A stretch of DNA of 64,000 nucleotides from Myxococcales bacterium (lineage in GTDB: Bacteria; Myxococcota; UBA727; VGSZ01): the NCBI GenBank assembly GCA_023248635.1, contig JAHFED010000004.1, forward strand, positions 62,001-126,000. Reading direction: 5' to 3'. A model generated the notes under the pieces. The model worked only from the letters and a program-made list of their open reading frames with translations, was not told the DNA's origin and ran no database searches. Positions 22,010 through 47,234 of the stretch are shown here, piece by piece (the stretch's first letter is position 1; each line of letters begins with the position of its first letter). The translations under genes and the position numbers were made by a program.

Positions 22010-22915
22010 GTGTGTCTGATTGTCGCGGTGGCGGTGGGCGCTTTAGCGTTCGGCATGCCGATCGCACCCCCATCCATTCGCGCCGCCGAGAAACGCATCG
22101 TTGACCTGGCGCGCGGGAGCACGAGCGCTCGCAACGAGAAGGCCATCGTCGACACGCTCGCATCGCTGGTGCCCAAAGAGCGCGCAGAGCTGGTGCGCCT
22201 GCTCGAGGGTCGCAACGGACACCACACGCTCGACCACATCCTCCAGGACGACATCGACGACCCCAAGCTGCGCAACGCTGCTCTGGCGTTGATCGGGGAG
22301 GCCCGGCCCTACATGAAGGCCGGCGGGCGGGTGGTGGTCTCCGACATCGACGACACCGTCAAGCCCACCAAGGATCCGACGGTAAAAGGCGAGGTCTACC
22401 CAGGGGCCAAGGCTTTCTACACCGCCCTCGATGCCGGTCCGGATGGGGACGACGCCGGCGGCGACATCCACTTCGTCACCGCCAGAGATGGGGTGGTGGT
22501 CCAAGCGGGCCATACGCTGGGCGAGACGGGCATCGACGTCGGATCGATCAGTTACGGCAATACCTTTGCGATGATGATGGCCGGATTCGGCTCCTTTAAG
22601 GGTATTGAGAATGAGAAAGTAAAAGACATCCTGAACTTGGCCGAGAAAAATCCTACGCGTCAAATGGTGCTCTTGGGTGACACGGTGCAGGCCGATGCCT
22701 CAGTGTTTCGCCGTGTGTTGCAAAAAGCACCCGAGCGCGTCGAAGTCGTATTGCTGCATGCGGTCAGGGGTTTCGCACCTCCTGCTGACCTGAAGAACAA
22801 TCCAAAAGTCGTGATCTTTACCGACTACGCCGACGCAGCCCGGCAGATGTTTGCCCGGGGAGCCATCTCCGCTGCCCAGCGCGACGCCGTGCTGGCGGAG
22901 TTTGCCCGCGTTTGA
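22010..22915 (+). CDS. App1-like phosphatase (DUF2183, HAD-type DxDxT)
   Basis: 301 residues from a GTG at 22010 that has GGAG upstream and starts a signal peptide or anchor (VCLIVAVAVGALAFG). TTG at 21974 is an alternative. The catalytic motif is VVSDIDDTVKPT near residue 115, followed by HFVTARDGV and MVLLGDTVQAD, as in the catalytic domain of yeast App1-type phosphatidate phosphatases and bacterial relatives. It is predicted to hydrolyse a phosphate ester, perhaps on a lipid, outside the cytoplasm. The terminal TGA is part of a repeat C hairpin. Confidence 0.75.
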   Translation: MCLIVAVAVGALAFGMPIAPPSIRAAEKRIVDLARGSTSARNEKAIVDTLASLVPKERAELVRLLEGRNGHHTLDHILQDDIDDPKLRNAALALIGEARPYMKAGGRVVVSDIDDTVKPTKDPTVKGEVYPGAKAFYTALDAGPDGDDAGGDIHFVTARDGVVVQAGHTLGETGIDVGSISYGNTFAMMMAGFGSFKGIENEKVKDILNLAEKNPTRQMVLLGDTVQADASVFRRVLQKAPERVEVVLLHAVRGFAPPADLKNNPKVVIFTDYADAARQMFARGAISAAQRDAVLAEFARV

Positions 22916-23038
22916 GCCGTTGGCACGGCTCAAGTGCCGATGGTTTGAGCCGTTGGCACGGCTCAAAACCAGGAAGCCCTTTGCGCCGTGCCAACGGCGC
23001 AAAGCAGGAAGCCCTTTGAGCCGTTGGCACGGCTCAAA
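22911..23038. repeat. Repeat C array, four hairpins
   Basis: Hairpins at 22911-22934, 22944-22967, 22979-23004 and 23015-23038. Three have arms TTTGAGCCGT/ACGGCTCAAA with a TGGC loop. The third has TTTGCGCCGT/ACGGCGCAAA with a GCCA loop, a matched change in both arms. The later linkers share CAGGAAGCCCTTTG. The array starts inside the stop codon of the App1-like gene and fills the gap to the convergent peptidase gene. Confidence 0.92.
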
Positions 23039-23081
23039 CCAAGAAGCACTTCCGAGTTGAGGATCGTGGGGCGCGCTCCTG

Positions 23082-24791
23082 TTAGGGCGACGTCAGGCGC
23101 AGCACGGGGAGGAGATCCTTGCGCTCGTCCCAAGCAGGGTGGCGACGGTAGAAGAAGTCGAGACGCGCCTCAGGGTCCTTTGCGAAGGTGGGATCGCTGC
23201 TGAGCTTGGCGCTGAACTCTTTGTGGAGGGCCGGGTCCTTCAGCAGCATGGCCCGGGCTTCGGCTTCGGCGACGTAGGGCTCCATGTATTCCTTCTGTTC
23301 GAAGGCCGCGTTGAAGAAGCCCCAGCCGACGAAGGACTCGGGTGCCCCCGGCTCGAACATCTCGACGACGAGGCGGCCGAGGGGTTGGGCCACGGGCACC
23401 ACCAGCGCACCTGGGGGCAAGGTCAGCGACGAGGCCTGCGACCAGGCTCCGACGGGCTTGGCCGTGGTGCGTCCCTCGTAGGGTTTGGCGCCGAAGGTGA
23501 CGGCGTCGGCGCGAAAGCTCTGGGCGTTCACCACTTGGGGAGCAGCGAGGGTCGAAAAAGCGATGCCGTGGGCAGTGAGACGCTCGGCCACAGGCTGGGC
23601 ATAGCCGGGCATGACGGCATAGGAGGCCGGCGCCGTCGTCGTCGTCGCCGCCTTCACGCTGCCCCACCAGGGCACCTGCCAGGTCTGCTTTTGGCTTTCG
23701 TCGTAGCGGGTCCACAGCGCGCCCGAGATGGCCGAGGGCTCGCGCGTGTAGGCGTAGCCGAGGAAGTCGAGAGTGGTCTTTTTGTCGGCGTCGGTGTCCC
23801 AGGCCAGCGTCACCATCTTGCCGGGCAGGGCGCGCCCCGCAGCGTCGACGTCGTTGGCGGCTTTCTGCCACGCGGCGGCCTGGGTTTTCGCGAGGGAGAG
23901 CAAGGCGCGCAGCAGGTCGGCGGTGGCGAGCACCCGCTCTCTCGATGTGCGCCATGAATGGGTCTCGACGAGGACCCCGAGCCGCCCGCGCCGCGCAGCG
24001 TATCCGTGGCTGTAGCGGGCTGGGGTGACACCAATGGCGAAGCCGGAGCTCGGGTCGTCGTCGACTTCGAAGGAAGGATAAAAAGGCAAGGGCAGGTGGC
24101 CGGTCTTTTTCAGCTGGGCCTGCAACGACGACGACAGAGCAGCAGCCACCGGCACCAGCGCTCCGTTGGCGCCGTCGTCGACGATGGGTTCGACGATGAC
24201 GGCGATGTCGTGCTGGAATTGGGCGCCATCGGTCACGTGCAGGTCGCAAATGAGCACAGGATCGATCTTGCGGATCAAGCCCAGCAGCGCGCGGGTCTCG
24301 GGCGAGTCGGCCTTGGTGAAGTCGCGGTTGAGATTCAAATTCGACGACGTCGTCCGCCAGCCCATCTCTTCGGGACCGCGCTGGTTGGGCCGGTGGTTCT
24401 TGCCGAAGCGCTCGTGACCGTCGACGTTGTACACGGGCACGAAAACCACGCTGACGTCGTCGACGCTCTTGGCGTTGAGCAGCTCCTCGATGATCAGAAA
24501 GCTGGCGTCTTTGCCGTCGATTTCGCCAGCGTGAATGCCGCCGATGACCAAGAGCGAGGGCTTGCCGGGCTTGCGGCGGCCGATGGTGAAAGCGTGCAGT
24601 GGACGTCCCTCGGGCGTGGTGCCGATGACGTCGCAGGCGGCGTCGTCGGAGTGCAACTGCTTCAAGCGCTCGCAGGCCTGAGCGACCTCATCGACACGGC
24701 CGGTTCTTTGGTAGTTCGAACGCTGGCCGACGGTGTCGAGGTCGAAGGCAGGGGCAACGACGGCGGCGTGCAGCAGGAGCAGGGCGAGCAT
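23082..24791 (-). CDS. Secreted M14-family zinc carboxypeptidase
   Basis: 569 residues with a signal peptide (MLALLLLHAAVVAPA) from the ATG at 24791, which has AAGG upstream; a GTG 13 codons earlier is also open. Peptidase M14 motifs: GGIHAGEIDGKD (zinc His and Glu), NLNLNRDF, a later zinc His in ICDLHVTDG and the catalytic Glu in VLVETHSW. The M14 domain covers about residues 50-320; the C-terminal 250 residues have no motif I know and end in a Tyr/Arg-rich stretch. It should cleave C-terminal residues or peptide cross-links in the periplasm or medium. Confidence 0.88.
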   Translation of the reverse strand: MLALLLLHAAVVAPAFDLDTVGQRSNYQRTGRVDEVAQACERLKQLHSDDAACDVIGTTPEGRPLHAFTIGRRKPGKPSLLVIGGIHAGEIDGKDASFLIIEELLNAKSVDDVSVVFVPVYNVDGHERFGKNHRPNQRGPEEMGWRTTSSNLNLNRDFTKADSPETRALLGLIRKIDPVLICDLHVTDGAQFQHDIAVIVEPIVDDGANGALVPVAAALSSSLQAQLKKTGHLPLPFYPSFEVDDDPSSGFAIGVTPARYSHGYAARRGRLGVLVETHSWRTSRERVLATADLLRALLSLAKTQAAAWQKAANDVDAAGRALPGKMVTLAWDTDADKKTTLDFLGYAYTREPSAISGALWTRYDESQKQTWQVPWWGSVKAATTTTAPASYAVMPGYAQPVAERLTAHGIAFSTLAAPQVVNAQSFRADAVTFGAKPYEGRTTAKPVGAWSQASSLTLPPGALVVPVAQPLGRLVVEMFEPGAPESFVGWGFFNAAFEQKEYMEPYVAEAEARAMLLKDPALHKEFSAKLSSDPTFAKDPEARLDFFYRRHPAWDERKDLLPVLRLTSP

Positions 24792-24889
24792 GCAGCCTTG
24801 TGTGCGGATCAACGTAGGGTCCGCAACCACATCGGCCGAAAGCCGAAGCTCCTGTTAGCGTTGCGCCGTCTTTCCAGCGAGGTCCCAGG

Positions 24890-25624
24890 ATGCGCATCGG
24901 TGGAGTGTCGGGTTCAAGCCACGCGGCGGGGATGAGCGCACTGTGGCACGACCCCGACTTCGAGCCGGTCCGTCGCTTCGAGCCCCCTCTCGTTCACAAG
25001 AACTTCGACGACCTCCCGGTTCCGACGGAGCAACACCAGCTTCCCGAGGGCGTCAAAGATCCCTTCGCCAAGCTCGACGCCGTCTACGACGCCGCCGCCG
25101 TTCAGATGGAGCGGGGCATCAAGGGCGCCGAGTTCCTACACGGCAAGAAACCCACCGCCGACGTCGGCCTGCCCGGTGGGCGACCCGCCGATCCCACGCT
25201 GCTGCACGATCGCCCCACGTCCATCGACCCCGCCAAACAGACCGCCCAGCGCATGGACCGGCAGGAGCGCGACCAGATCCGCCGCGTCGATCAGGCGGCC
25301 ATCACCCAGCCCGCCCAATCCAGCAGCAGCACCAAGACTGCGGGCGCCAAGGAGGCCGAAAAAGCGGCCAACCAGGGCGCCGTCGACTCCGCCGTCTCGG
25401 CCGCCCTTACCTTCGGGCCCATGGCAGCGGTGCAAGCAGCGACGTCGTTGGTGCAGGGTCCCTTGCCGGCCTTGGCCGCTCAGGCAGCCAGCGCCGTGCA
25501 GACGGCAACGGCAGTGGCTGCCGCTGGCCAGCTCGGCATGGCGGGCATCACTGAGGGCCTCAAAGAGACGAGCGAGCCCGACCCGGACACCCTCTCGGCG
25601 CCCCGACGCGGCCTCAAAAGGTAA
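24890..25624 (+). CDS. Hypothetical Ala/Gln-rich protein
   Basis: 244 residues from the ATG at 24890 with GAGG upstream. The first 120 residues are polar, with Pro and Asp. The centre (about 125-165) is a Gln/Ala/Lys-rich helix, and 165-225 is a small-residue, moderately hydrophobic stretch (GPMAAVQAATSLVQG). There is no signal peptide and no family I recognise. It is divergent from the M14 gene. Its stop abuts a fragment of repeat B that leads into a repeat A array. Confidence 0.55.
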   Translation: MRIGGVSGSSHAAGMSALWHDPDFEPVRRFEPPLVHKNFDDLPVPTEQHQLPEGVKDPFAKLDAVYDAAAVQMERGIKGAEFLHGKKPTADVGLPGGRPADPTLLHDRPTSIDPAKQTAQRMDRQERDQIRRVDQAAITQPAQSSSSTKTAGAKEAEKAANQGAVDSAVSAALTFGPMAAVQAATSLVQGPLPALAAQAASAVQTATAVAAAGQLGMAGITEGLKETSEPDPDTLSAPRRGLKR

Positions 25625-25797
25625 CTGAGGGCAGAGAATTCATCGCCGCCAGGCGATGAACCTGTAGATAATTCATCGCCGCCAGGCGATGAACCTGTAG
25701 AGAATTCATCGCCGCCAGGCGATGAACCTGTAGACAATTCACCGACACGCGAAGCGCTGTCGGTGAATTCACCGAGGCCGCTTCGCGCATCGGTGAA
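25625..25797. repeat. Repeat array: B fragment, three A1, two A2
   Basis: A truncated B end (CTGAGGGCAGAGAATTC) leads into three identical A1 hairpins (25639-25660, 25672-25693 and 25705-25726; arms TTCATCGCC/GGCGATGAA, loop GCCA). Their period is 33 bases with CCTGTAGANAA linkers. A2 follows at 25738-25767, and a variant at 25768-25797 keeps only the outer arms TTCACCGA/TCGGTGAA. It separates two convergent genes. Confidence 0.92.
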
Positions 25798-27168
25798 TTA
25801 GAGGGGATTGAAAGTGCTGACAAGCAAAGGAACCTTGTCCTGAAATTCCAGACTGCCGCCGACGTCGGCAACCTGCCAGAGCACATAATCCCCCTGCACA
25901 TCGCCGACGGCATCGAAGGTCAGATCCCCCGAAGGCCCGATGTAATCGACGTCGTCGCCCTCGAGCAGTCGTGCCGCAATCTCGCCAAAGAAATTACCGC
26001 CGTCGAAGCGGACGCCGCCGCTGCGGCCCGAGACCGCGAAGAGCGCGTTGCGTACGTCTTTTCCGATGGTAGAGCGCGCTTTACTGACTGCCAATGCAGT
26101 GATGAACATGGAATCAAAAGCCTGGGCGCAATAGGACGAGGGGGAGGCGCCGTGCCGCGCGAAGAAGGCCGTCGAAAACTGATCGAAGGCGGGCGAGAGA
26201 GCGTGAAAGGGAACGGTGCCGACGAGCTTGGCCTGCAGCGACCTGGGTGCGTTGGTCTGCAGCTCTTGCAGGAAGGCCGCTTCTTGGGCGCCGTCGCCGG
26301 TGAGGTAGTGGTAGCTGAGCGCGCTGGTGATCAGAGCTGGCTCCAACTGGCCCACCAGTCGAGCTCCCTCGAAGCCGAAGGTCACAAAGACGATGCAGAG
26401 CTCCTCGCTGGGATCAGCGCTCGCCGTGATCGCTGTGACGAAGGCGGCGGCGGCGTCGTCGACTTCGCCTTGGTTGGGGTCTTCGTTGGGAAACGAGCCG
26501 GTGGCGATGACGTCGGCGATGTCGGCGCCGACGCTCTGCCCCTCGTAGTTGTTGACGAACTCTGATTGGAATCCCTGCCCATAGGAGTCGGGACGCGCGA
26601 AGAAGGCGACCTGCGGGCAAGCAGGGAAAGCCAGACCGGTGTCGACGTCGTCGATCCCGTTCTTGGCGATGAACGCCAAGGCCTTGCCCTGCAACACGTC
26701 GGAGGGCGCGGTGCGAAAAAAGAACCCGCTCTCCGCAGAGTTGCGTGCGGCGAGGTCGGTAGAAGTCGCGCAGCACGAGACCAACGGAATTTCGGCAGCG
26801 ATGGCGACGTCGAGGACGGCGTCGGCTTGGCCTGAGGTTTCGGGGCCGACGAAGGCTGTGACGTCTTCGTCGATCAAATCGGTGGCGAGGCTGGCGGCGG
26901 TCGCGGGATCCGAGCCGGTGTCGACGACGACAAGCTCGAGCGGGCGCCCATCGAAGACGCCGCCGGCGGCGTTGACCTGCTCTTGGGCCAGGCGCACGGC
27001 CTTTTGTAGCTCGGTGCCGAAGCTCGCCAGGGCTCCCGAGCTGCTGGCGAGCACACCGATTTTCACGGGCTCCAGTGCTGCTTCGCGCGCGGGAACACAG
27101 GAAGCTCCCCCAATATTGAAAGAAGTAAGAACGACGACGACGACGGCTGATTTGATGCTCGATCTCAT
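25798..27168 (-). CDS. Branched-chain amino-acid-type ABC binding lipoprotein (type 1 PBP)
   Basis: 456 residues; the ATG at 27168 has GGAG seven bases upstream. A lipoprotein-like signal ends at GGASC. The rest is the LivJ fold: VKIGVLASSSGALASFG, AVRLAQEQVNAAGGVFDG, PATAASLATDLIDEDVTAFVGP, SCCATSTDLAA, and a C-terminal half with GTVPFHAL and FDSMFITALAV. No permease or ATPase genes are adjacent, so it is either an orphan transporter component or a sensor subunit. The stop TAA abuts the end of repeat A2. Confidence 0.85.
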   Translation of the reverse strand: MRSSIKSAVVVVVLTSFNIGGASCVPAREAALEPVKIGVLASSSGALASFGTELQKAVRLAQEQVNAAGGVFDGRPLELVVVDTGSDPATAASLATDLIDEDVTAFVGPETSGQADAVLDVAIAAEIPLVSCCATSTDLAARNSAESGFFFRTAPSDVLQGKALAFIAKNGIDDVDTGLAFPACPQVAFFARPDSYGQGFQSEFVNNYEGQSVGADIADVIATGSFPNEDPNQGEVDDAAAAFVTAITASADPSEELCIVFVTFGFEGARLVGQLEPALITSALSYHYLTGDGAQEAAFLQELQTNAPRSLQAKLVGTVPFHALSPAFDQFSTAFFARHGASPSSYCAQAFDSMFITALAVSKARSTIGKDVRNALFAVSGRSGGVRFDGGNFFGEIAARLLEGDDVDYIGPSGDLTFDAVGDVQGDYVLWQVADVGGSLEFQDKVPLLVSTFNPL

Positions 27169-27255
27169 GATGTTCTCCGTCGGCGCAACTGTCATCTCAA
27201 GGCCGCGCTTCGCTTTCTTTTAGGTGCCGGAATGCTCTGAGTAATCAAGATTTCA

Positions 27256-29181
27256 TTATCGAAGATCAAGTCGAGCCTTGAAGGTTTCACCGGATCGAAC
27301 GCGGGCCAGGTAGGCCTCGCGCAGATTGGCATCGGAATTGACCAGGGTGAGCTCGAGGTTTCCCGCGGGCACGGCCACACGCACCAGCGGGGTCTCGCCG
27401 AGCTTCTTCTTGCCCAAAAAGACCGTGGTCCAAGGGACGGTGTCGAGCGTGAGAAAGCCCGTGGCGTCGACGTCGTCTCCACCCTTGGGTGCAGGGATCG
27501 GGGTCTCGGGGTGCGCGGGCTCGACAGCCCTTTCGACGGGCTTTTCGATTGGCTCGGCTCGGCGCGGCGGATCGCGTCTTTTGCGCGGATGGCGCGTTTC
27601 CCCAGCAGCGGGCTCGGCGGCACCGACGACGCTGCCCGAGCCTCCATCGGCGAGGTCGTCGACGGCTTCGGGCGCTTCGCCGCGCAGCTCCTCGAGCGAG
27701 GCCACGATGAGCCCCACATCGGCGGCTGCGACCCCGGCGTCATCGACTCTGGGGGAACGCACGGTGACTGCCTCGTCTTCGCCCTGCAAGGAACGCCGGC
27801 GCGCATCGATGCCCAAGACGACGACCACGGCGATGAGCACCCCACACAGGGCGGCGACAACGGGGACCAGCAGCGAGCGCGGCTTCGGCAGCGGCACCAC
27901 GGTCGACGTTTTCGTGACCGACGCCGGCAAGGGAGCAACCACCAAGGCCGACGTCGACGGCGTCGATCCCGAGGCAGGCTTTGGCTGCTCCTGCGTCTGG
28001 GCGGGGGGAGCAGCGAGCGCGGGTCGCAGCTGGGGGGCAGAGGTCGCGCCGTCGCCCTCGGCCGTGATCAGCGCCGAGCTGCGCTGGGGCGAGGGGGTCG
28101 GGGGATCGCCAGCGAGCTCGGAGGGTTGCAGGGCCAGCCGCGGCAAATCCAGGGCCGAGTCCCCACGTTTGCCGTCGTCGTCGTCGTCGTCTTTGATCTC
28201 ACCTTGCTGGTTCAGGCAGGTCTCGAGCACCGCGCGTTGCTTCTCGATGACGTCCTTGAAGAGCTGCTGCATCAGCTCCTTCACCTGTGCTGGCTTGAAG
28301 CGATCCCCCGCGGCGACGATGCCGTCTTCGAGCGCATCCTTGAATTCGTCGGCGCTGGCAAAGCGCTGGTTTCGATCCTTGGCGAGGGACTTCAAGCACA
28401 CCTTGGCGAGGTCCGGCGAGCACTCGGCGTTCACCCGCACCGGTGAGATGGGCGGTTCCTGCAACACGCGCTCGACGGAGCGCACGATGGTCTCGGCCTT
28501 GTAAAGACGCCGACCCGCCAACATCTCCCAAAGCACGATGCCGGCGGCGAAGACGTCGGAGCGGGCGTCGAGGGGCTCACCGCGCACCTGTTCTGGGCTC
28601 ATGTAGGCATACTTGCCCTTGAGCGTTCCAGCGTCGGTTTCTTGCACGCGCATCGCCGCTTTTGCAATGCCAAAATCAACCAACTTTGGCAAACCATCAT
28701 AGGTCACAAGAATGTTCTGCGGGCTCACATCCCGATGGATGATCTGGAGCGGCCGTCCTCGAGCGTCGCGCGCTGTGTGCGCCGCTTGCAAGCCATCGAG
28801 AACGCTGAGAAACAAGCCAGCCCACAACGTCGACTTCGGATAAGAACCGCTGCGTTTTGCAATGCGTAAAACGACGCCAAGATTCTGGCCGTCGATGTAT
28901 TCCATGACCATGAAATAGCGTCCGTCGACCTCGCCGACGTCGAAGGTGTGGCCGATGTTGGGGTGGTTCAGCGCCATCGAGAGCCGGGCTTCGTCGAGGA
29001 AGGAGCTCACGAGCATGGGATCGCCTGTGAGGTGGCTGTGCAGCCGTTTGACGACGAGGAGCTTTTCGATGCCCGCCGGTCCCGGCGCGTGGGCGAGGTA
29101 GATCTTGCCCATCCCGCCATGTCCGATGCGGCCCAGGAGCACGTACTTGCCAAGACGGCGTCGTGCTGTCGGCTTCATCAC
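27256..29181 (-). CDS. Transmembrane Ser/Thr protein kinase with PEGA domain
   Basis: 641 residues. Kinase domain 12-285: GRIGHGGMGKIYLA, VVKRLH, IIHRDVSPQN, LVDFGIAK, YMSPEQVRGEPLDARSD, all with catalytic residues kept. A helical segment and a disordered Pro/Ser/Asp region (with DDDDDD) lead to a membrane helix near 450 (LLVPVVAALCGVLIAVVVVLG). The C-terminal 70 residues are a PEGA-like domain (FLTLDTVPWTTVFLGKKKLGETPL). It is the same architecture as the kinase at 16167 but has no repeat-derived linker. The start is ATG at 29181 or 29178. Confidence 0.92.
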   Translation of the reverse strand: MMKPTARRRLGKYVLLGRIGHGGMGKIYLAHAPGPAGIEKLLVVKRLHSHLTGDPMLVSSFLDEARLSMALNHPNIGHTFDVGEVDGRYFMVMEYIDGQNLGVVLRIAKRSGSYPKSTLWAGLFLSVLDGLQAAHTARDARGRPLQIIHRDVSPQNILVTYDGLPKLVDFGIAKAAMRVQETDAGTLKGKYAYMSPEQVRGEPLDARSDVFAAGIVLWEMLAGRRLYKAETIVRSVERVLQEPPISPVRVNAECSPDLAKVCLKSLAKDRNQRFASADEFKDALEDGIVAAGDRFKPAQVKELMQQLFKDVIEKQRAVLETCLNQQGEIKDDDDDDGKRGDSALDLPRLALQPSELAGDPPTPSPQRSSALITAEGDGATSAPQLRPALAAPPAQTQEQPKPASGSTPSTSALVVAPLPASVTKTSTVVPLPKPRSLLVPVVAALCGVLIAVVVVLGIDARRRSLQGEDEAVTVRSPRVDDAGVAAADVGLIVASLEELRGEAPEAVDDLADGGSGSVVGAAEPAAGETRHPRKRRDPPRRAEPIEKPVERAVEPAHPETPIPAPKGGDDVDATGFLTLDTVPWTTVFLGKKKLGETPLVRVAVPAGNLELTLVNSDANLREAYLARVRSGETFKARLDLR

Positions 29182-29509
29182 CAGCCGGTCGACCTCGGCA
29201 CCTTCCAGATCAGCCTCCGCTGTGGGGAATGGTCCTCCCTCCCAACCGTTGAGTCAAAGCGACGACTGCGGCGTTGGCGTGCCTTCGGTACACCTGGCTG
29301 CCGTCGACGCCGACCTGCTCCTGGCTCCTCACGGCCTGCGGGCGCTGTGTGGCGGTGGTGTGGATCGGGGGTGGGGCACCCGGTGAGAAAGCCTCGACGC
29401 AGTGCGCGTCGACGTCGACGCACCGCATTGCGATGCCTTCACACCTCGGCAGTCGGCCGATGGCAAACGGCCCGGAACCTGCTCAAAGGGACGAGTCTTG
29501 GAGGCTCGA
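29182..29509. other. 328-base divergent intergenic region
   Basis: Between a kinase gene (minus) and a glycosyltransferase gene (plus). It has no gene or clear promoter; small GTCGAC palindromes are present at 29405-29421. The forward gene has a strong GGAGG six bases before its ATG. Confidence 0.45.
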
Positions 29510-30700: not shown

Positions 30701-30767
30701 GTCGACGACTTGTGGCTTGGCAGCAACGGCGGTTGTCCCAACGCACCTCCGAGCCTAGAGTCTGGTC

Positions 30768-31110
<343 letters not shown>

Positions 31111-31124
31111 AGGAAGCACTTTGC

Positions 31125-31214
31125 GTGAAGACGCGCGAGCGCCTTGAAGTTTGGATGTTCAAGACGCGCCAGCGTCTTGAAGTTTGGATGTTCAAGACGC
31201 GCCAGCGTCTTGAA
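31125..31214. repeat. Repeat D array, three hairpins
   Basis: A decayed hairpin (31125-31148, loop GCGA) and two perfect ones (31158-31181 and 31191-31214) with arms TTCAAGACGC/GCGTCTTGAA and a GCCA loop. The period is exactly 33 bases with the linker GTTTGGATG. The last arm runs into the tRNA-Ala promoter. Confidence 0.92.
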
Positions 31215-31237
31215 GTTGTCCCCCGCCGCGCTAGGGT
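31210..31237 (+). promoter_or_regulatory. Putative promoter of tRNA-Ala
   Basis: TTGAAG (31210-31215), 16 bases, then TAGGGT (31232-31237); the mature tRNA starts 13 bases later. The -35 hexamer is made mostly by the end of the last repeat D arm. Four of six bases match in each box. Confidence 0.5.
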
Positions 31238-31249
31238 CCTCGACGGTGT

Positions 31250-31325
31250 GGGGTTGTAGCTCAGTTGGGAGAGCGCGAGCTTTGCAAGCTTGAGGTCGTC
31301 GGTTCGATCCCGTCCAGCTCCACCA
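31250..31325 (+). tRNA. tRNA-Ala (TGC)
   Basis: A full cloverleaf of 76 bases with encoded CCA. The acceptor GGGGTTG pairs with CAGCTCC, the D arm contains TAGCTCAGTTGGGAGAGC, the anticodon stem CGAGC/GCTTG carries TGC at 34-36, and the T loop is TTCGATC. It stands alone, not in an rRNA operon. Confidence 0.95.
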
Positions 31326-31412: not shown

Positions 31413-31537
31413 TTCATCGCCGCCAGGCGATGAACGTGTAGACAATTCACCGACACGCGAAGCGCTGTCGGTGAATTCATCGCCGCCAGGCGATGAACGT
31501 GTAGACAATTCACCGACACGCAAAGCGTGTCGGTGAA
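31413..31537. repeat. Repeat A array, A1-A2-A1-A2
   Basis: A1 at 31413-31434 and 31476-31497 (arms TTCATCGCC/GGCGATGAA, loop GCCA) alternate with A2 at 31446-31475 and 31509-31537 (arms TTCACCGACA/TGTCGGTGAA). Linkers are CGTGTAGACAA. The A1+A2 unit is 63 bases. The array lies between the tRNA-Ala terminator and a convergent PilZ gene. Confidence 0.92.
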
Positions 31538-31548
31538 TTCACTGAAGC

Positions 31549-35261: not shown

Positions 35262-35262
35262 A

Positions 35263-35325
35263 TTCATCGCCGCCAGGCGATGAACCTGTAGACAATTCAC
35301 CGACACGCAAGGCGCTGTCGGTGAA
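35263..35325. repeat. Repeat A, one A1-A2 unit
   Basis: A1 at 35263-35284 (loop GCCA), linker CCTGTAGACAA and A2 at 35296-35325, exactly one 63-base unit, plus a broken A1 start to about 35335. It lies between convergent genes whose stops are at 35261 and 35336. Confidence 0.9.
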
Positions 35326-37204: not shown

Positions 37205-37510
37205 CCCGTGCGCGAGCTCCCGAGTCGAACATCAAGCGGACGGGGGATGACATCGACAAGTTCGAGTCGCGGGCGCGCTTCCCGCGCATCATCCCGCGTC
37301 TTTCCATCTCGGAACGCGGCGGAACGCGGAGTTGATGGGGGCCCCGCGTCCGGCTCCGCCGGCGCGGCGGGAGGTCCGCATCAGATCAGACCTCCCAGAA
37401 GAGCATGCCCGACGGAGCTGAACGAGACCGCTCTGCGGTCGAAGTTCAGCGAGATCGGGGATCAGTGGCGTGAGGCAGAATTCATCGCCTGATGGCGACG
37501 AATTCACCGA
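37205..37510. repeat. Repeat E copy 2 with a decayed A1
   Basis: Positions 37417-37465 are the inverted match (47 of 49) to 10784-10832. Positions 37205-37416 contain the other blocks of the E element (CGAACATCAAGCGGACG, GCATCATCCCGCGTCTTTCC, GGCTCCGCCGG) in a different order and orientation. The element ends next to a degenerate A1 hairpin (37480-37501, loop TGAT) and half an A2. It looks like a mosaic built by rearrangement. Confidence 0.6.
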
Positions 37511-40533: not shown

Positions 40534-41101
40534 GACGAACTTTCTCAGACGTCGTCGTCACATCGGCTGCCCCCGCGGTTTTTCCGGGGGAGGGTGGCGC
40601 GACGACGACGAAGGGGCCCCGATCCAGCTTTGCAGCCGGGGAGCCGTGGGGTTTCAAAGCAGAAAAGCTGCTCCGTTCGCCCTCGCCGAGTGGTGCCTTC
40701 GCCATCAGGTTCAGCCGCACCGACGCACCGACCGCGCTCGTCACCACCGACCCGGGGAGCTCCCGGGCGGTGCGGACCTGCGCAATCTTTGTCGTCGTCA
40801 TGCAGCGCTCCTGGCGCGCGAAAGTTTGTGCCGTGCCAACGGTACAACCGTGAGCACTGCCATCCGGCGAAGGCAGGCGGCGCGTCCTTTTTCAAGGTGC
40901 GTGAGACAGCGGCCAGGCCAAAGGGCGGGACCACCACGTCGACCACGCATGCGCCGACCGGAGCCTTCGTTGGCCACGCCTGCCCGACGTCGACGCCGGG
41001 CGGTTCGCAACCTGAAGCTGGCCACGGCGTACCAGACGACAGCCGGACGAACAACTGCTCATTGCGCCGACCGTTCGCGCCCCGGCGTTCTCGGTCATGA
41101 T
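40534..41101. other. 568-base divergent region between rne and the MtfA-like gene
   Basis: Contains a GC-rich hairpin (CCCCCG ... CGGGGG, 40566-40587) in the rne leader, a decayed repeat C hairpin at 40825-40848, and a minus-strand open frame (40472-40801) that overlaps the rne start in another frame. I cannot say whether that frame is used. No clear promoters. Confidence 0.45.
40825..40848. repeat. Decayed repeat C hairpin
   Basis: Arms TTTGTGCCGT and ACGGTACAAC around GCCA, with two arm mismatches, followed by TGAGCACTG, which resembles the C linker GGAAGCACTTTG. A solitary, drifting copy. Confidence 0.7.
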
Positions 41102-41827
41102 GTGCCCGTGGGTCTGTTCAACCTGCTGCAGGGGCTTCGTCGCCGTCGCTGGCTGCGCCGTCCCTTTCCCTCAGCCTGGGAGCCCATCGTTGCTGCGCGC
41201 TTGCCCTTCGCCGCCCGCTTCGACGCCGACGAAGGCGCCCGCTTTCGCGATCATCTGAAGGTCTTTGCCTGGGAGAAGATTTTTCGCGGCATCGATGTGA
41301 GCGTCGACGACGAAATGCGCGTCGTCATCGCCGGCTCGGCGGCGCGGATCGTGCGCAACCTGCCCCATGGCCTCTACGACGCCATCGACACGGTGCTGGT
41401 GCGCCGTTTCGCAATCGAACACGAAGGCGGCCGGATTCTGGGCTACGTGCACCAGCTCGGCACCCTCCTGCTCTCGTGGGACGCGGTGAAGCACGGCATC
41501 GCCACCAGCAACGACGGGCGGGACACCGCGGTACATGAGTTCGCCCACGCCATCGATCTCAAAGACGGCATCTTCGACGGCACCCCGACCTTCGACGACG
41601 GCCACGACGACGCTGCCCGGGCCTGGGCTGGGGTTTTTTCGCGCCACTACCTCGCCCTCAAGGCCGCGCCTGAGCGTGGCGTGCTGCGCGCCTATGGGGC
41701 GACCAACGAAGCGGAGTTCTTCGCCGTCGCCACCGAGGTGTTTTTTGAAAAGCCCGCGGTGTTGAAGCGCAAGGCGCCCCAGCTCTATGCGACCCTCGCA
41801 GCCTACTACCGCGTCGAGCCCCACTGA
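41102..41827 (+). CDS. mtfA: MtfA-like zinc metallopeptidase (M90)
   Basis: 241 residues from a GTG at 41102 (another GTG two codons later). It begins LFNLLQGLRRRRWLRRPFPSAW, as MtfA proteins do. The zinc site is TAVHEFAHAIDLKDG (HExxH) and the later conserved segment is TNEAEFFAVATEVFFEKP. In enterobacteria MtfA is a cytosolic peptidase that binds Mlc and affects glucose uptake; here the regulatory partner is unknown. It converges with the next gene two bases after its stop. Confidence 0.88.
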   Translation: MPVGLFNLLQGLRRRRWLRRPFPSAWEPIVAARLPFAARFDADEGARFRDHLKVFAWEKIFRGIDVSVDDEMRVVIAGSAARIVRNLPHGLYDAIDTVLVRRFAIEHEGGRILGYVHQLGTLLLSWDAVKHGIATSNDGRDTAVHEFAHAIDLKDGIFDGTPTFDDGHDDAARAWAGVFSRHYLALKAAPERGVLRAYGATNEAEFFAVATEVFFEKPAVLKRKAPQLYATLAAYYRVEPH

Positions 41828-41829
41828 GC

Positions 41830-42153
41830 TCAGGCCGCCTTCTTCACGATCTTGTCTTTGACCCTGTCCCAGGTCTTCTCGACGACTTTGTCGGCGGCCT
41901 TATCGACGATGTCATCGACCAGTCCTGAGGCGAGCCCGGTCGGGTCGTCTTTGACCAGCTCCTGGGCCTTGGGGCGCATTACGTCGACGGCGAGCTGCTT
42001 GAGCTTGCCCTTGGCTTCGTCTTCGGCGGTCGCTTTGATTTCGTCCATCGCGCGCCTGACGATCTCCTCCTCACAGAGGGCGACCACCTTGTCGACGAAC
42101 TTGCCGGTGACGCCGCCGCCGAACAGGCCTTTGATCGTGTCGAGCAAACCCAT
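41830..42153 (-). CDS. Small amphipathic-helix protein
   Basis: 107 residues from the ATG at 42153, with AAGGAG seven bases upstream. After MGLLDTIKGLFGGGVTGKF, the rest is charged amphipathic helix (EEIVRRAMDEIKATAEDEAKGK; VDKAADKVVEKTWDRVKDK) with alternating Lys/Asp, like apolipoprotein-type or stress-related helical proteins. There is no signal or membrane span and no named family I can give with confidence. Confidence 0.72.
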   Translation of the reverse strand: MGLLDTIKGLFGGGVTGKFVDKVVALCEEEIVRRAMDEIKATAEDEAKGKLKQLAVDVMRPKAQELVKDDPTGLASGLVDDIVDKAADKVVEKTWDRVKDKIVKKAA

Positions 42154-42293
42154 CGCAGACTCCTTGGTTGCAGTTGTGACGTGTCGACGTTGAGACGCGG
42201 CGCGGGTTGCGACGCGATCGCCGGCTGTGACTACGTGGGCCAACCGCGTCGCACAACACAGACCTTTCGGTCAGGAAAATCGCCCGGACCTCG

Positions 42294-43064
42294 TCAGCGA
42301 GGGGTGATCGCGAAGAGATCGTGGCCCCGGCCGTAGTAAAGGGTGGCCAAGGTGTGCCGCTGCGTGCGGGGACGAGCATCGAGCCGACACAGCGCCTGCG
42401 ACTCCAACGGACCCTCGAGAAATTCTTTCTCGAAGCGCCACGTCTTGACACCCAGGCCGCAGACGTCGCCGCCGACGGAGAGGTCGAGCACCAGCTTCGA
42501 CGCCGGCGATCGAATCACGCGCTCGACCAAGGTGCCCGGTGGCGCCCAGGCCACGATGACGACGTCGGGTTGGTGCTCTCTCACTGCTGATTCCGCGCCG
42601 GATTTCGCGACATTGGGCAGTGGCTGGATCCCGGCGAAGCGCGTGTTGCCGAACTCCTTGCGGTCATTCGCGCTCATGCGCTTCTGGGGGCGGGTCCAAG
42701 AGAAGTCGTCGGTGGCGATCACCTCGAGGTCGGGGCGCCGCCGTTGCAGACAGGCCGACAAGAAGCCGTCGCCGGCGGCCACTTCGAGCACTCTCACAGC
42801 TTTGAGCTCGTCGAGGAGATCGCACAAGTGGCCCAGCCATTCGCGCGTGGGCAAGAGGTAGAGGGGCCCGGCAGAATTGGCTTCGCACACCCACCAGAGA
42901 TCGCGGACATCACAGGCCTCGATGGCGGCGACCAGCTCGCGCGCGGCGGGCAGACGACGTCGTCCATCACGGTCCCACAGCACGTCGACCAGGGCGGCGC
43001 GTGCAGCTCCACGGGCGGCCGTGTTGCGTCCAGCGTTGACCGGCGCGGGGACCGTGACGCTCAT
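42294..43064 (-). CDS. SAM-dependent methyltransferase-like protein
   Basis: 256 residues. Motif I is VRVLEVAAGDGFLSACLQ near 95, followed by LEVIATDDFSW; later PDVVIVAWAPPGTLVERV and SKLVLDLSVGG. The first 80 residues are helical, with DLWWVCEANSAGPLYLLP. The ATG at 43064 overlaps the permease stop as ATGA, so it is the last gene of a four-gene operon. The substrate is unknown. Confidence 0.75.
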   Translation of the reverse strand: MSVTVPAPVNAGRNTAARGAARAALVDVLWDRDGRRRLPAARELVAAIEACDVRDLWWVCEANSAGPLYLLPTREWLGHLCDLLDELKAVRVLEVAAGDGFLSACLQRRRPDLEVIATDDFSWTRPQKRMSANDRKEFGNTRFAGIQPLPNVAKSGAESAVREHQPDVVIVAWAPPGTLVERVIRSPASKLVLDLSVGGDVCGLGVKTWRFEKEFLEGPLESQALCRLDARPRTQRHTLATLYYGRGHDLFAITPR

Positions 43065-44764
43065 GGGCTTCTCCGGCGCAGGCGACTGAGGCCGAGCTGG
43101 GCCACGAGTACGAAGGCCACCAACAACGACGACAAGGCCATGGCTTGCTGGGGGTCGCCGTAGTCGTAGAGGGAGAACAAGACCACGCCGAGGGTCTGGG
43201 TGCCGGGTGCTTGCAAGAGCACGCTCATGGTCAGCTCGGTGAAGCAGGGCAGGGCGATGGCGACGGCGGCGGCCACGAGGTGGGCCCGCAGCAAAGGCAG
43301 GGTGACGTCGACGAAGGCCTGGCCGGCCGGGGCGCCGCTGGTGCGGGCTGCTTCTTCGAGGGAGGGGTGCACCTGGCCCAAGGCGACGTCGACGGCGCGC
43401 AGTCCCAGGGCCGCGTGCTTGATGGCGTAGGCGATCAGCACCAGGGCCGTGCTGCCACCCAACACCAGAGCCAAGGTGAGCCGTTCGGCGACGATGACGC
43501 GGATCTCCTGCGAAAAGGCCAGCACCAGCCCGACGGCGACGATGGTCCCCGGCAACGCATACACGAGCTCGGCGGTCAGGCGAGTCGCCTGCAAGGCCCG
43601 TCGCAACCGTCCTGTCGATCGCTGCAGCGCGGTGCCGATAACGACGCTGGCGACGACGACGACGATGGCGGCTCCGGCTGCGAGCCACAGGCTGTCGAAG
43701 GCCGCGTGCTGCACATCGGCGCGCGCGAGCACGCGACGCACATGCACGAGGCCGAAGTTGTCGATGACGACGCCTGCTCCGGCGATCTTCAGCAGGCCTT
43801 GCAGCACCAGGGCCAGCAGGGGTGCGACGACGAGGATCACGATGACCGACCAAGCCAGCACCGCGACCGGGAGGCGCCAGCGCTGCAGGGGCAGGGTTTG
43901 CGGACGGGCCGCTTTGCCGGCGACGACGACGACGTTCTTGCCTCTCACGAGGACCGCCGGGAGCGCGAAGGCCACGCCGGCCATGAGCGCGAGGGCCAAG
44001 GACAAGCCCAAGGCCTCGCGGAGATCGGTCGCTCCGCCCGACTGCAGGGCCACCGCGATGCGAGCGGTGACGACGACGACGGGGGGATCGGCGGACAACC
44101 CCAAAAGCACCGGCACGCCCCACGAGGCAGCGGCCGCGACAAAAACCAGGGCCAGCGACGACAGCAACGAGGGCAGGGTCAGGGGCAAGGTGTGATCGAG
44201 CAGCGCCCGCAGTGGGGAGGCGCCGGCGGTGCGCGCGGCTTCTTCGAGGGAGCCATCAATGACCGACAGCGCTGCCCGCAAACGCAGCACGACCAAGGGC
44301 AGAAACGCGACCCCCAAGACGACGACGATACCGCCCCGGCTGTCGACGTCGCCGCCCCACAAGGTGGTCAGGGGAGCCAGGCCGATGCGATCGTCGAAAA
44401 GCGCGCGAAAAGCGAAGGCCAAAATGTACGGCGGAATGGCCAAAGGCAGCGCGCCCAGAGCCCCCAGGGCCCGCGCCCCGGGTACATCGGTGCGCTCGAC
44501 CAAGAGAGCCAGAGGCACGCCGACGACGGCGGCGACGACGACGGCACCGGCTGAGACCACGACGCTCTCGCGCAGCGCCAACAGGTTCTTGGTCTGACAT
44601 ACCGCGGTCAAGGCGTCGAAGTTGAGCGAGCCTGGCAGGCCCACGGCAATCCCCAGCAGCAGCAGCAGCGGCAGCAGGGCAAAGACGACGACGGCGGCGC
44701 AGGCGACGACGACGACGGCGCTGACCAACTTGGCCGCCCCCCCTGAGGGCAAAGAACTGCTCAT
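43061..44764 (-). CDS. Fused two-domain ABC permease (Fe3+/FbpB-type)
   Basis: 567 residues with about twelve membrane helices in two homologous halves. Each half has the ABC permease EAA loop: SLEEAARTAGASPLRALLDHTLP and SLEEAARTSGAPAGQAFVDVTLP, 285 residues apart, as in FbpB/AfuB iron permeases. It follows the binding protein, overlapping its stop as ATGA. No ATPase gene is in the window. Codons 2-13 (SSSLPSGGAAKL) lie on a family B repeat, so the extreme N-terminus may be repeat-derived. Confidence 0.88.
   Translation of the reverse strand: MSSSLPSGGAAKLVSAVVVVACAAVVVFALLPLLLLLGIAVGLPGSLNFDALTAVCQTKNLLALRESVVVSAGAVVVAAVVGVPLALLVERTDVPGARALGALGALPLAIPPYILAFAFRALFDDRIGLAPLTTLWGGDVDSRGGIVVVLGVAFLPLVVLRLRAALSVIDGSLEEAARTAGASPLRALLDHTLPLTLPSLLSSLALVFVAAAASWGVPVLLGLSADPPVVVVTARIAVALQSGGATDLREALGLSLALALMAGVAFALPAVLVRGKNVVVVAGKAARPQTLPLQRWRLPVAVLAWSVIVILVVAPLLALVLQGLLKIAGAGVVIDNFGLVHVRRVLARADVQHAAFDSLWLAAGAAIVVVVASVVIGTALQRSTGRLRRALQATRLTAELVYALPGTIVAVGLVLAFSQEIRVIVAERLTLALVLGGSTALVLIAYAIKHAALGLRAVDVALGQVHPSLEEAARTSGAPAGQAFVDVTLPLLRAHLVAAAVAIALPCFTELTMSVLLQAPGTQTLGVVLFSLYDYGDPQQAMALSSLLVAFVLVAQLGLSRLRRRSP
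44726..44758. repeat. Family B repeat at the permease start
   Basis: The sequence TTGGCCGCCCCCCCTGAGGG with flanks matches the reverse complement of the B element at 17418-17448 except for the central GC block and an extra base. It covers codons 3-13 of the permease. Confidence 0.65.
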
Positions 44765-45885
44765 GGGGCGAGCCCACGCTCCAGGACGTCGAGCACGGCG
44801 CGGCGATCGGCGGCCACGCGATCGAGCAAAGCGCTGTCGGGGGGGCGCTTTTGCAGCAGCTCGGCCAGGGTGGGGACGTCGCCGGCGGGTGGCGGCAAGC
44901 GGGGATCCACGGCGTGCATGTTGCCGGCGGGTCCACGCATCAAGGCTTGACCGGCGGGGGAAAGCACCAGGTCGACGACGACGCGGGCGGCGCTCGGGTT
45001 TCGCGTGTCGGCCAAGATCGCAATGTCGCCAGCGACGACGACGGCGCCATCGCTGGGGATCACGAAGCCCACCGGTTCTCCGCGTGCTCGGGCCGCCAAC
45101 ACATTTTCGAGCAGCACCACGCCAAAGCGACGTTCGCCAGCGAGCACCTTCTGCAACACCACGCTGTTGCCGCCCGCGATGGACGCCCCGCGTGCGCGCA
45201 GGCGGCCCAAGAACGAGACGTCGCCGCCGCCGACGGACACTGCCGTCATGAAGGCGGTGCCCGACGAGAGGGGATCGCCCAGCGCGGTGTCTTTGGCGGG
45301 GGCATCGTCGTCGAGCAGCAGACGCGCAAACGACGTCGGCACCTCGGCGGCTTTGGTCTTGTTGCTGTGAAAAGCGATGACCATGGTCGAGATGCGGGCG
45401 GCGCAAAAGGCGTTGTCGAGGTCGACGAGGCTGCGATCGATGGGCGTGGCCAAAGGCGAGGCATAGGGCAGCAGCTGTTTCTCGCTCTTGAGTCGTCGAT
45501 AGAGGAAGGGATCGCTGACCAAGAGCACGTCGGCGCCGGCCTTGCCGCTCTTCAGGTCGGCGTCGAGACGCGCGGCAACCTTCTCGCTGCCGCCCTGAAA
45601 CACCACGAGCTCGACGCCGGGCAACTGCTGCTTCGCCAGCGCCTCCAAGCCATCGGTGACCTCGCGGTAGGCCGACGTGTAGAGCACCACCTTGCCGCGC
45701 GGACCTTCGCTGCCCGTCGTCGTCGCCGTCACCGGAGCGCCGATCTCGATGCGACAGCCGCCCACCAGCGCGAGGGCCGCCACGAGCAGGGATCGAAGCA
45801 GCGCAGGACGTCGTCGCAGCGCGGCCCCCTTGCCCCCCAACATCGGGGGGTGAGGCGGCCGGGTCGAAGGGGAAACCACGCGCAC
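44761..45885 (-). CDS. ABC substrate-binding lipoprotein (FbpA/thiamine-type)
   Basis: 374 residues from a GTG at 45885 with GGAG eight bases upstream and three bases after the rsmB stop. The lipobox is ALVGGC. The fold is type 2 PBP: VVLYTSAYREVTDGLEALAKQ, VFQGGSEKVAARLDADLKSGKAGADVLLVSDP, FHSNKT, and FVIPSDGAVVVAGDIAIL followed by ARVVVDLVLSPAGQALM, as in iron(III) and related binding proteins. It works with the fused permease downstream. The metal or substrate is not determined by sequence. Confidence 0.85.
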   Translation of the reverse strand: MRVVSPSTRPPHPPMLGGKGAALRRRPALLRSLLVAALALVGGCRIEIGAPVTATTTGSEGPRGKVVLYTSAYREVTDGLEALAKQQLPGVELVVFQGGSEKVAARLDADLKSGKAGADVLLVSDPFLYRRLKSEKQLLPYASPLATPIDRSLVDLDNAFCAARISTMVIAFHSNKTKAAEVPTSFARLLLDDDAPAKDTALGDPLSSGTAFMTAVSVGGGDVSFLGRLRARGASIAGGNSVVLQKVLAGERRFGVVLLENVLAARARGEPVGFVIPSDGAVVVAGDIAILADTRNPSAARVVVDLVLSPAGQALMRGPAGNMHAVDPRLPPPAGDVPTLAELLQKRPPDSALLDRVAADRRAVLDVLERGLAP

Positions 45886-45888
45886 CTC

Positions 45889-47166
45889 TCAGCTCCGGAC
45901 GAGGTGAGCGATGAAGAAGCCGTCGCAGCGGGGGGGCAAGAGGTGCACGTCGGGCTTGGCGCGCTGGACGCCTTTGCCAACGACGCTATCGACGACGTCT
46001 TCGTTTTCGGCGCGCAGCAGGGAGCAGGTCGCGTAGACGACGGCGCCACCGGCTTTGACCAGGGTCAGCGCGCTTGCCAGTAAGGAGCGCTGCAGCTCGA
46101 CCAGGGGAGGCAGGTCTTCTTCGACGAGGCGCAGGGCCAGATCGGGCGCGCGGCGCAGGGTGCCAGTGCCGCTGCAGGGCGCATCCACGAGCACACGATC
46201 GAACGACGCCGGCAAGAAGGGCGCACGCAAGCCATCGGCGACGACGCCGAGTACCTGGGCGGGCAGGCTCTTGAGCAAGCGGCCGCCGTCGACGTCCGCA
46301 GCGACGACGTCGGCGCCTCCCAGGGATAAGAGGCGCGCCTTGCCGCCACCGCCCGCGCACAGATCGAGCACGCGTTCTCCGGCGACGGCGCCGACGGCGA
46401 GGCCCACCGCTTGGCTGCCATCGTCCATGGGCCAGCAGGCAGCAGCGACGGCGGCGGGCAGCTTGGCCCAGGAGAAGCGGCCTTCGACGACGCGCACCCC
46501 CAGCGGGGAGAAAGAGGAAGGCACCCCGGTGGCTCCTTGCGCACGCAAGGCCGCGATGACGTCGTCTCTCGAGAGGCGGCGGGGATCGATGCACAAGACC
46601 GGCACCGCCGGCGTCGCCAGGGCTTCGATCAAGGCGGGGGCGTCGACGCCGAAGCCGGCTTCGAGGCGTCGGCGCAACCAGGTGGGCAGGGAGCTTGGCA
46701 GGTGGAGGCCGGTCGCCGCGGCGTCTTGCACGAGCGCGCGCAGCACGTCGGGCAGGGCGGTGAGGGCCCGCGCGTCGACGTCGACGCCGTTGGCGATGCC
46801 GGCCAGGCAAAGGGCGCAGAGGTCCAGCAGACGACGTCGTGGCACTGTGCCGCGCTCGTGGGAGACGGCGTCGTCGATGAGTCCCTGCACGGTGCGCGCG
46901 TGGCGGGCCCAGCAGAAGACGAGATCTCCCGTGACGCGGCGCTCGCGCGGTCCGAGATGGCGCTCTCTGGCGACGTCGGCGACGACGCGGTCGAGGGGTT
47001 CACCGGCCGCCCGCTGCCGGGCCATGACGTCGAGGGCCGCCTGCAGCACCAGGGGCAGGGCGTTGGTTTCGCTGAGAACCCGTTCGCGGCCCTGGGCCAG
47101 TCGCGCGGTGGTCTGGAAGGGGCCGTTGGGCGCCTGCCTCGACGATTGCTTGCTTCGATGGCGCAT
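45889..47166 (-). CDS. rsmB: RsmB-like 16S rRNA (cytosine-C5) methyltransferase
   Basis: 425 residues. An N-terminal NusB-like helical domain (35-165) is followed by the Sun/NOL1 methylase: motif I DLCAGGGGKARLLSLG, DAPCSGTGTLRRAPDL (motif IV Cys) and YATCSLLRAENE (catalytic Cys). RsmB methylates C967 of 16S rRNA in E. coli. The ATG at 47166 has AGGA upstream. A repeat D hairpin lies directly before the Shine-Dalgarno in the leader. First gene of a four-gene operon with a transporter. Confidence 0.92.
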   Translation of the reverse strand: MRHRSKQSSRQAPNGPFQTTARLAQGRERVLSETNALPLVLQAALDVMARQRAAGEPLDRVVADVARERHLGPRERRVTGDLVFCWARHARTVQGLIDDAVSHERGTVPRRRLLDLCALCLAGIANGVDVDARALTALPDVLRALVQDAAATGLHLPSSLPTWLRRRLEAGFGVDAPALIEALATPAVPVLCIDPRRLSRDDVIAALRAQGATGVPSSFSPLGVRVVEGRFSWAKLPAAVAAACWPMDDGSQAVGLAVGAVAGERVLDLCAGGGGKARLLSLGGADVVAADVDGGRLLKSLPAQVLGVVADGLRAPFLPASFDRVLVDAPCSGTGTLRRAPDLALRLVEEDLPPLVELQRSLLASALTLVKAGGAVVYATCSLLRAENEDVVDSVVGKGVQRAKPDVHLLPPRCDGFFIAHLVRS

Positions 47167-47175
47167 GGTTGTCCT

Positions 47176-47234
47176 GGTTCAAGACGCGCCAGCGTCTGGA
47201 ACCATCAGAACTTCAAGACGCTGGCGCGTCTTCC
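47176..47234. repeat. Repeat D, two hairpins in a divergent region
   Basis: Hairpin 47176-47203 has 12-bp arms GGTTCAAGACGC/GCGTCTGGAACC with one mismatch and a GCCA loop. Hairpin 47212-47232 is in the other orientation (loop TGGC) with seven clean base pairs. This is the only D array between divergent genes. Confidence 0.85.

What the first reader, a model, noticed from the sequence alone, without database searches (positions are those of the whole stretch)
22911..47234. Three unrelated palindrome families share one hairpin design with a GCCA tetraloop
Families A1 (arms TTCATCGCC/GGCGATGAA), C (TTTGAGCCGT/ACGGCTCAAA) and D (TTCAAGACGC/GCGTCTTGAA) have no arm similarity, yet each is a 9-10 bp stem closed by GCCA (TGGC on the other strand). 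They lie in tandem at 33-36-base periods with family-specific linkers. At least eight loci in 64 kb carry them. A common loop on different stems suggests one mechanism, such as a structure-reading enzyme or selection for RNA hairpins, creating or maintaining different sequences. The families do not match a repeat class I know, though REP/BIME and Rickettsia palindromic elements are the closest concepts.
Basis: seen in the sequence. Interest (0 to 1): 0.85.

Follow-up and report, generated by a model that had tools for sequence, protein, structure and literature searches.

The report
Orphan tandem hairpin repeats, shared GCCA loop
This bacterial genome carries almost a thousand small DNA hairpins in short tandem arrays between genes; their stems differ between families and between sister species, but the four-base loop (and, in one related set, the connecting linker) stays the same, and no recognisable active mobilising enzyme was found.

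Summary
In 1.65 Mb of this 6.5-Mb genome, hairpins with a GCCA loop number 223 against 4 expected; no other tetraloop comes close. Genome-wide there are about 970 copies (A 246, C 328, D 398 at up to 2 mismatches). The families are not wholly unrelated: C and D share linker, loop and foot, and their four stem differences are all paired changes. A sister species (G001) has arrays with a different stem (TTCTTCGGC) but the same GCCA loop, nearly the same linker (GCATCAGAAC) and a 32-nt period, plus an A-B composite with one paired stem change. I read this as a genus-level superfamily of REP/BIME-like repeats: stem sequence turns over by paired changes, while loop, linker and foot persist. Arrays look head-to-tail amplified, and about ten loops are inverted in place, as replication template switching would produce. 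No active RAYT/Y1 transposase was found; the one Y1-like protein lacks the HUH motif and tyrosine and also occurs in relatives without these repeats. Strand symmetry and lack of a U-tract argue against an RNA terminator role. New variant of a known kind; how it disperses is open.

The parts
17325..17387 (-). B hairpin (17325-17354), 11-nt linker, A hairpin (17366-17387), reading on the - strand
   Evidence: exact matches to both consensus hairpins
22911..23051 (.). C array: four hairpins (22911, 22944, 22980, 23015). Loops are TGGC, TGGC, GCCA, TGGC while the linkers between 22944 and 23015 all read the same way (in-place loop inversion)
25639..25797 (+). A x3 at 33-nt period, then B (25738-25767) and a diverged B (25768-25797); 15 nt after the stop codon of the + gene, facing a - gene
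30955..31123 (+). C array that begins at the stop codon of a conserved 63-aa ORF; G001 has the ORF but no array
31128..31214 (+). D array, 2.7 copies, whose linkers (GTTTGGATG) are reversed relative to the loop: read as a loop-flipped unit that was then amplified
31413..31542 (+). A-B-A-B composite at 63-nt period, just after tRNA-Ala (31250-31325)
35263..35325 (+). single A-linker-B composite
37481..37502 (-). diverged A hairpin
40825..40848 (+). diverged C-type single hairpin (TTTGTGCCGT GCCA ACGGTACAAC)
47178..47235 (+). D pair; linker CCATCAGAAC forward, first loop GCCA, second loop inverted to TGGC

Best explanation
The arrays belong to a genus-level superfamily of REP/BIME-like DNA repeats. 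The unit is a 9-10 bp stem with a TT/AA foot, the loop GCCA, and a 3' linker of 9-11 nt ending in AC (or AA), i.e. [TT-stem-GCCA-stem-AA]-linker, 32-35 nt in all. Shown: stem sequences turn over by paired changes, within this genome (C, Cg, D and intermediates) and between two sister species, while loop, foot and the C/D-type linker persist; units are directional; arrays are head-to-tail with locally shared linkers; insertion is lineage-specific and mostly extragenic. Inferred: (1) arrays grow by replication slippage or unequal exchange over the hairpin unit; (2) template switching at the hairpin copies one arm onto the other, so stems change in pairs, and now and then inverts the loop in place; (3) dispersal to new sites was done by a factor that reads loop, foot and linker, which is not a recognisable active RAYT in this assembly (lost, missing, or of another kind).
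For: Loop enrichment 223 vs 4. C vs D: 24/34 identity, linkers 8/10, all four stem differences paired, permutation p 4e-5. On 18 hand-picked C/D-type units 7 of 10 pairs change on both sides; score 0.588 vs 0.204 shuffled and <=0.123 slid. In 102 hairpins chosen on arm similarity only, pairs 3, 4, 5, 7 and 10 each have two or more well-populated Watson-Crick types, and pair 5 shows all four. Sister species G001: arrays TTCTTCGGC-GCCA-GCCGAAGAA with linker GCATCAGAAC or GGATCAGCAC at 32 nt, and TTCATCGGC-GCCA-GCCGATGAA-CGTGTAGACAA-B. A stem-blind loop+linker pattern hits 106 times in G000 and 7 in G001, once each in G006 and G033 (neither pairs), and 0 in the other 191 phylum genomes. Loop left free in the selection: 92-98% per site, linker 81-88%. 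Linkers identical within vs between arrays: D 0.47 vs 0.07, C 0.40 vs 0.17. About 10 in-place loop inversions against 135 concordant pairs; B vs A 98 concordant, 3 flipped. Template switching is known to homogenise inverted-repeat arms and invert 2-5 bp spacers when arms exceed 9 bp (PMC8604942). rplD-rplW: about 175 bp between aligned blocks with a hairpin here, about 55-58 bp and no hairpin in G001 and G002.
Against: A's relation to C/D is weak (stem p 0.026, linker p 0.23), so A may be a separate family that shares the loop. The template-switch step rests on outcome, not on an observed event; conversion between inverted copies could also flip loops. Within family D alone paired changes are few. 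The G001 arrays were first found through similarity to A stems, so the spread of stems there is a lower bound, and the linker match uses the best of several D/C linker variants. No mobilising enzyme was identified, so dispersal is unexplained. No clean empty site with a target duplication was obtained.
Confidence: 0.65

Rival explanations
1. A structure-reading nuclease or transposase of an undescribed type, present now or lost, recognises the GCCA loop, the TT/AA foot and the linker, cuts at the AC/TT junction and actively copies units; the constant parts are its recognition site.
For: Constant loop, foot and linker with free stems in two species; sharp, asymmetric unit ends: almost no left-flank information for C and D, linker plus about 5 nt conserved on the right, then nothing; lineage-specific dispersed insertions.
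Against: No candidate gene: PF01797 none at 1e-3; the single RAYT-like protein is catalytically dead and also present in relatives without repeats; none of 14 genes flanked by clusters on both sides reads as a transposase by inspection of its N-terminal sequence (no family search run on them).
Confidence: 0.25
2. RNA-level elements: terminators or 3' mRNA stabilisers selected as transcribed hairpins.
For: 89% of placed clusters are extragenic and densest between convergent genes (1.63 per kb vs 0.82 tandem and 0.60 divergent), often within 50 nt of a stop codon.
Against: No strand preference between co-directional genes (GCCA on coding strand 92, TGGC 89); G-T and A-C mismatches about equal (50 vs 38); no U-tract; copies also in divergent regions and inside the ribosomal operon.
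Confidence: 0.08
3. Double-stranded dyad binding sites for a dimeric protein (operator or nucleoid protein).
For: Perfect dyads; paired changes would also arise if two half-sites track one protein.
Against: Dimer sites normally keep half-site sequence and vary the centre (general knowledge); here the centre is constant and the half-sites vary between families and species; loop inversions are not specifically predicted.
Confidence: 0.06
4. Shared loop is chance or base composition.
For: None.
Against: 223 vs 4 expected; same loop in a sister species.
Confidence: 0.01

Closest known systems
GTAG REP / BIME / REPIN with RAYT (TnpA-REP)
   Same: 20-40 bp palindromes, hundreds of copies, extragenic, enriched between convergent genes, species-specific families with paired stem changes, mosaics of different palindromes
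CGTC REPs (dRS3 of Neisseria, RPE-4/RPE-6 of Rickettsia)
   Same: 8-9 bp stems with A-T pairs at the first two positions, 4-5 nt loops, short unpaired tail often CCA, no dedicated transposase (PMC3733652)
   Different: No CGTC tag before the stem; tandem head-to-tail arrays; 9-11 nt linker; Myxococcota are not mentioned in that survey
IS200/IS605-type Y1 single-strand transposons
   Same: A hairpin at fixed distance from a possible cleavage junction would fit such an enzyme (inference)
   Different: No HUH/Y1 enzyme with catalytic residues found in the genome
Quasipalindrome template-switch hotspots
   Same: Arm homogenisation and spacer inversion at short inverted repeats with arms over 9 bp (PMC8604942)
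   Different: Here seen in a dispersed high-copy repeat family

Membership tests
GTAG REP/RAYT system | High-copy short extragenic palindrome | tested here: met
   about 970 copies; 148 of 167 placed clusters between genes
GTAG REP/RAYT system | GTAG (or close variant) at the foot of the hairpin | tested here: not met
   C and D linkers lack it; A has TGTAGACAA in the linker, 4 nt from the next foot, variable
GTAG REP/RAYT system | Cognate RAYT with HUH motif and catalytic tyrosine | tested here: not met
   PF01797 none; NF047646 one hit below cut-off, HUH and Tyr replaced; the assembly is 96.7% complete
GTAG REP/RAYT system | Head-head or tail-tail dimers dominate | tested here: not met
   same-orientation neighbours strongly dominate; most 'opposite' ones are loop flips in register
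CGTC REP | CGTC tag at one end | tested here: not met
   no conserved left flank in C and D; linkers end AAC/CAC/CAA
CGTC REP | A-T pairs at stem positions 1-2, 4-5 nt loop, CCA tail | tested here: inconclusive
   foot TT/AA and 4-nt loop met; tail begins CCA in some D and C linkers only
BIME-like mosaic | Alternation of different palindromes with set linkers | tested here: met
   A-linker-B 63-nt composite, 70 concordant A-B pairs; mixed C/D arrays
CRISPR array | Unique spacers between repeats | tested here: not met
   linkers are 9-11 nt and repeated within arrays
Intrinsic terminator | Stem followed by a U-tract | tested here: not met
   linker sequences

The most novel reading that the evidence does not exclude
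An orphan hairpin repeat system in which the loop, foot and linker are the recognition part, read by an undescribed enzyme, while the stem sequence turns over freely by paired changes, so that sister species carry the same element with different stems.
Probability: 0.25. Interest if true: 0.85.

Novelty: new variant of a known kind. Interest (0 to 1): 0.58.

Why it matters
REP dispersal is normally tied to RAYT enzymes. A high-copy family without a detectable active RAYT, with constant loop and linker but interchangeable stems and with in-place loop inversions, separates sequence recognition from structure and offers natural material for testing how short palindromes are copied, corrected and amplified at replication forks. 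It also bears on CGTC-type REPs, whose mobiliser is unknown.

Tried and rejected
Y1/RAYT search: PF01797 negative; NF047646 gave one 317-aa protein (C9:359453-360406, - strand) with a DnaA C-terminal-like domain and an A hairpin just past its stop, rejected as the mover because HUH and Tyr are replaced and orthologues occur in genomes without these repeats. Genes flanked by clusters on both sides: no transposase by inspection of translated starts; no family search was run on them. One reverse transcriptase, no link found. Target-site duplication: terminal TTCAA/AATTC repeats exist but left and right variants do not covary convincingly (judged by eye). Thermodynamic test of GCCA: in DNA and RNA models GCCA scores at or near the best and TGGC does not, but many loops tie, so uninformative. 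IMG/VR, plasmid and phage searches: no match. Exact A scan of named genomes: none.

Full report
Observation. The window is G000:C92:62001-126000, part of a 6.53-Mb assembly in 135 contigs, 96.7% complete. In 1.65 Mb of this genome, perfect hairpins with a 4-nt loop and arms of at least 7 bp number 469 against 315 in order-3 Markov controls, and the excess is mostly one loop: GCCA 223 vs 4.0. Allowing one mismatch in 9-bp arms, GCCA hairpins number 377 vs 7-9 in 1.93 Mb. At up to two mismatches the whole genome holds 246 A, 328 C/Cg and 398 D hairpins, with zero for the reversed control.

Anatomy. The unit is directional: a hairpin with a TT/AA foot, loop GCCA, then a 9-11 nt linker: D CATCCAAAC, CATCAAAAC, CCATCAGAAC; C GCAGGAAGCAC, CCATCGGCAC; A CCTGTAGACAA. 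A is usually followed through its linker by a second palindrome B (TTCACCGACACGC-GAA-GCGCTGTCGGTGAA), giving a 63-nt composite. Of 175 clusters in 1.93 Mb, 96 hold two to nine hairpins, nearly all in one direction at 33-35 nt or 63 nt. The left flank of clusters carries little information for C and D (A keeps AA before the foot); on the right the linker and about 5 nt of a restarting foot are conserved, then nothing for C and D. Linkers are far more alike within an array than between arrays, which is what local tandem amplification leaves.

Are the families unrelated? No for C and D. Their consensus units agree at 24 of 34 positions, linkers at 8 of 10, and all four stem differences are compensated (permutation p 4e-5; the linker variants compared are the closest of several). 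Intermediates with other stems and the same loop exist, for example TTTGTGCCGT/ACGGCACAA, TTCCGGCGC/GCGCCGGAA, TTTGGGCGC/GCGCCCGAA. On 18 hand-picked units, 7 of 10 pairs have changes on both sides and the covariation score is 0.588 vs 0.204 shuffled and at most 0.123 when slid; that set was chosen partly for pairing, so, on 102 hairpins chosen by arm similarity alone, is the fairer count: pairs 3, 4, 5, 7 and 10 are each built from two or more well-populated Watson-Crick types, and most of that signal is the C/D split plus pair 5. A relation of A to C/D is only suggestive.

Sister species. The exact A stem and the D stem at two mismatches are absent from relatives, and C from 18 relatives. 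But A at two mismatches picked up G001, same genus. A directed search and reading of the loci show arrays of TTCTTCGGC-GCCA-GCCGAAGAA with linker GCATCAGAAC or GGATCAGCAC at 32 nt, and an A-B composite TTCATCGGC-GCCA-GCCGATGAA-CGTGTAGACAA-TTCACCGACA... with one compensated stem change. A pattern blind to the stem (loop, linker, loop) hits G000 106 times, G001 7 times, and two other phylum genomes once each without a palindrome. So loop, foot and linker persist across species while the stem is replaced. The positions are lineage-specific: in G001 an array lies upstream of rpsJ where this genome has none, and here a C hairpin lies between rplD and rplW where G001 and G002 have a short gap. The C array at 30955 begins at the stop codon of an ORF that G001 keeps without an array.

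Loop versus linker. When hairpins are chosen on arms alone, 347 of 406 loops are exactly GCCA or TGGC; per-site loop conservation is 92-98%, linker identity to the nearest consensus linker 81-88%. The loop is thus somewhat better kept than the linker, not dramatically so.

In-place loop inversion. In about 135 neighbouring pairs loop and linker point the same way; in about ten, one loop (or both) is inverted while the linker and the 33-36 nt spacing are unchanged. Three cases are in this window (22944-23038, 31158-31214, 47178-47235); the second looks amplified after inversion. Polymerase template switching at short inverted repeats is reported to do exactly two things, make the arms alike and invert spacers of 2-5 bp when arms exceed 9 bp (PMC8604942). 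That would account for paired stem changes without selection for a folded product. It remains an inference here; conversion between inverted copies is not excluded.

RNA or DNA? Between co-directional genes GCCA is on the coding strand 92 times and TGGC 89 times, G-T and A-C mismatches are similar (50 vs 38), and there is no U-tract. This gives no support for a strand-specific RNA role. Energy models do not separate GCCA from many tied loops.

Mobiliser. PF01797 finds nothing at 1e-3. NF047646 finds one protein below its cut-off: 317 aa, Y1-like N-terminus and a DnaA C-terminal-like region. Its HUH position reads SEVRL and the expected tyrosine is W (positions assigned from general knowledge of RAYT motifs); orthologues in G001, G002, G003, G005 and G009 likewise lack the motif and the tyrosine, and G002 and G003 lack these repeats. 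It is therefore unlikely to move them, though binding is not excluded. An enzyme of another kind, a lost one, or one in the missing 3% of the assembly are all open.

Comparison. The repeats behave like REP/BIME elements and are not members of the GTAG/RAYT class (tag, enzyme and dimer orientation fail) nor strictly of the CGTC class (tag fails), though the latter also lacks a dedicated transposase and has A-T feet and 4-5 nt loops (PMC3733652). I found no description of this design in the papers searched, a search limited to open-licence PMC. The organism's name was not available; relatives with 9-13 Mb genomes suggest Myxococcota (inference).

Limits. The gene calls are from a home-made hexamer caller.

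Noticed in passing
L131:961-1914 (-), G000:C9:359453-360406: A 317-aa protein with a Y1/RAYT-like N-terminal part and a DnaA C-terminal HTH-like part; HUH and catalytic Tyr are replaced in all aligned orthologues across the order, suggesting a domesticated, non-catalytic protein.
   Followed up: partly
L037:17329, L039:8379, L060:7347 and about 20 others: A longer repeat (E): GGGCCCCGCGTCCGGCTCCGCCGGCGCGGG GGGAGGTCTGCACCAGACCTCCC AGAAGAGCATCCCCGACGG, two hairpins, not in tandem arrays, about 21-23 copies in 852 kb.
   Followed up: no
L035:12748-12795, L044:2480 and 18736, L035:18284, L036:10702: Five near-identical copies of a two-hairpin element (GGAGGGTCTG-NNN-CAGACCCTCC plus CTCGTCGAGGC-GAA-GCCTCGACGAG) with conserved flanks, probably a MITE or IS end.
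   Followed up: no
window 49115-49177 and 17423-17519: A 27-nt GC-rich motif GAATTGGCCGCCCGGCCCGAGGGCA, in tandem or next to A elements, likely another mosaic component.
   Followed up: no
L189, L192, L193, L195 (G001): TTCATCACC-GCCA-GGTGATGAA hairpins in G001 embedded in a longer conserved repeat (TGAATGCACGGCATGG...CTTCGCGCCGACGAGC), a different element with the same loop.
   Followed up: no
L188:1225-2694 (-), G000:C11:75544-76155: The only reverse transcriptase (PF00078) hit of the genome, in a 489-aa ORF; no link to the repeats found.
   Followed up: partly
G000 C4 end, C48 start, C51 start, C66 end: Several contigs end inside these arrays, so the assembly probably breaks at them and copy numbers are lower bounds.
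   Followed up: no
window 12344-12761: A tandem repeat of 99 nt, about 4 copies, GTCGTC-rich, inside a predicted gene on the - strand.
   Followed up: no
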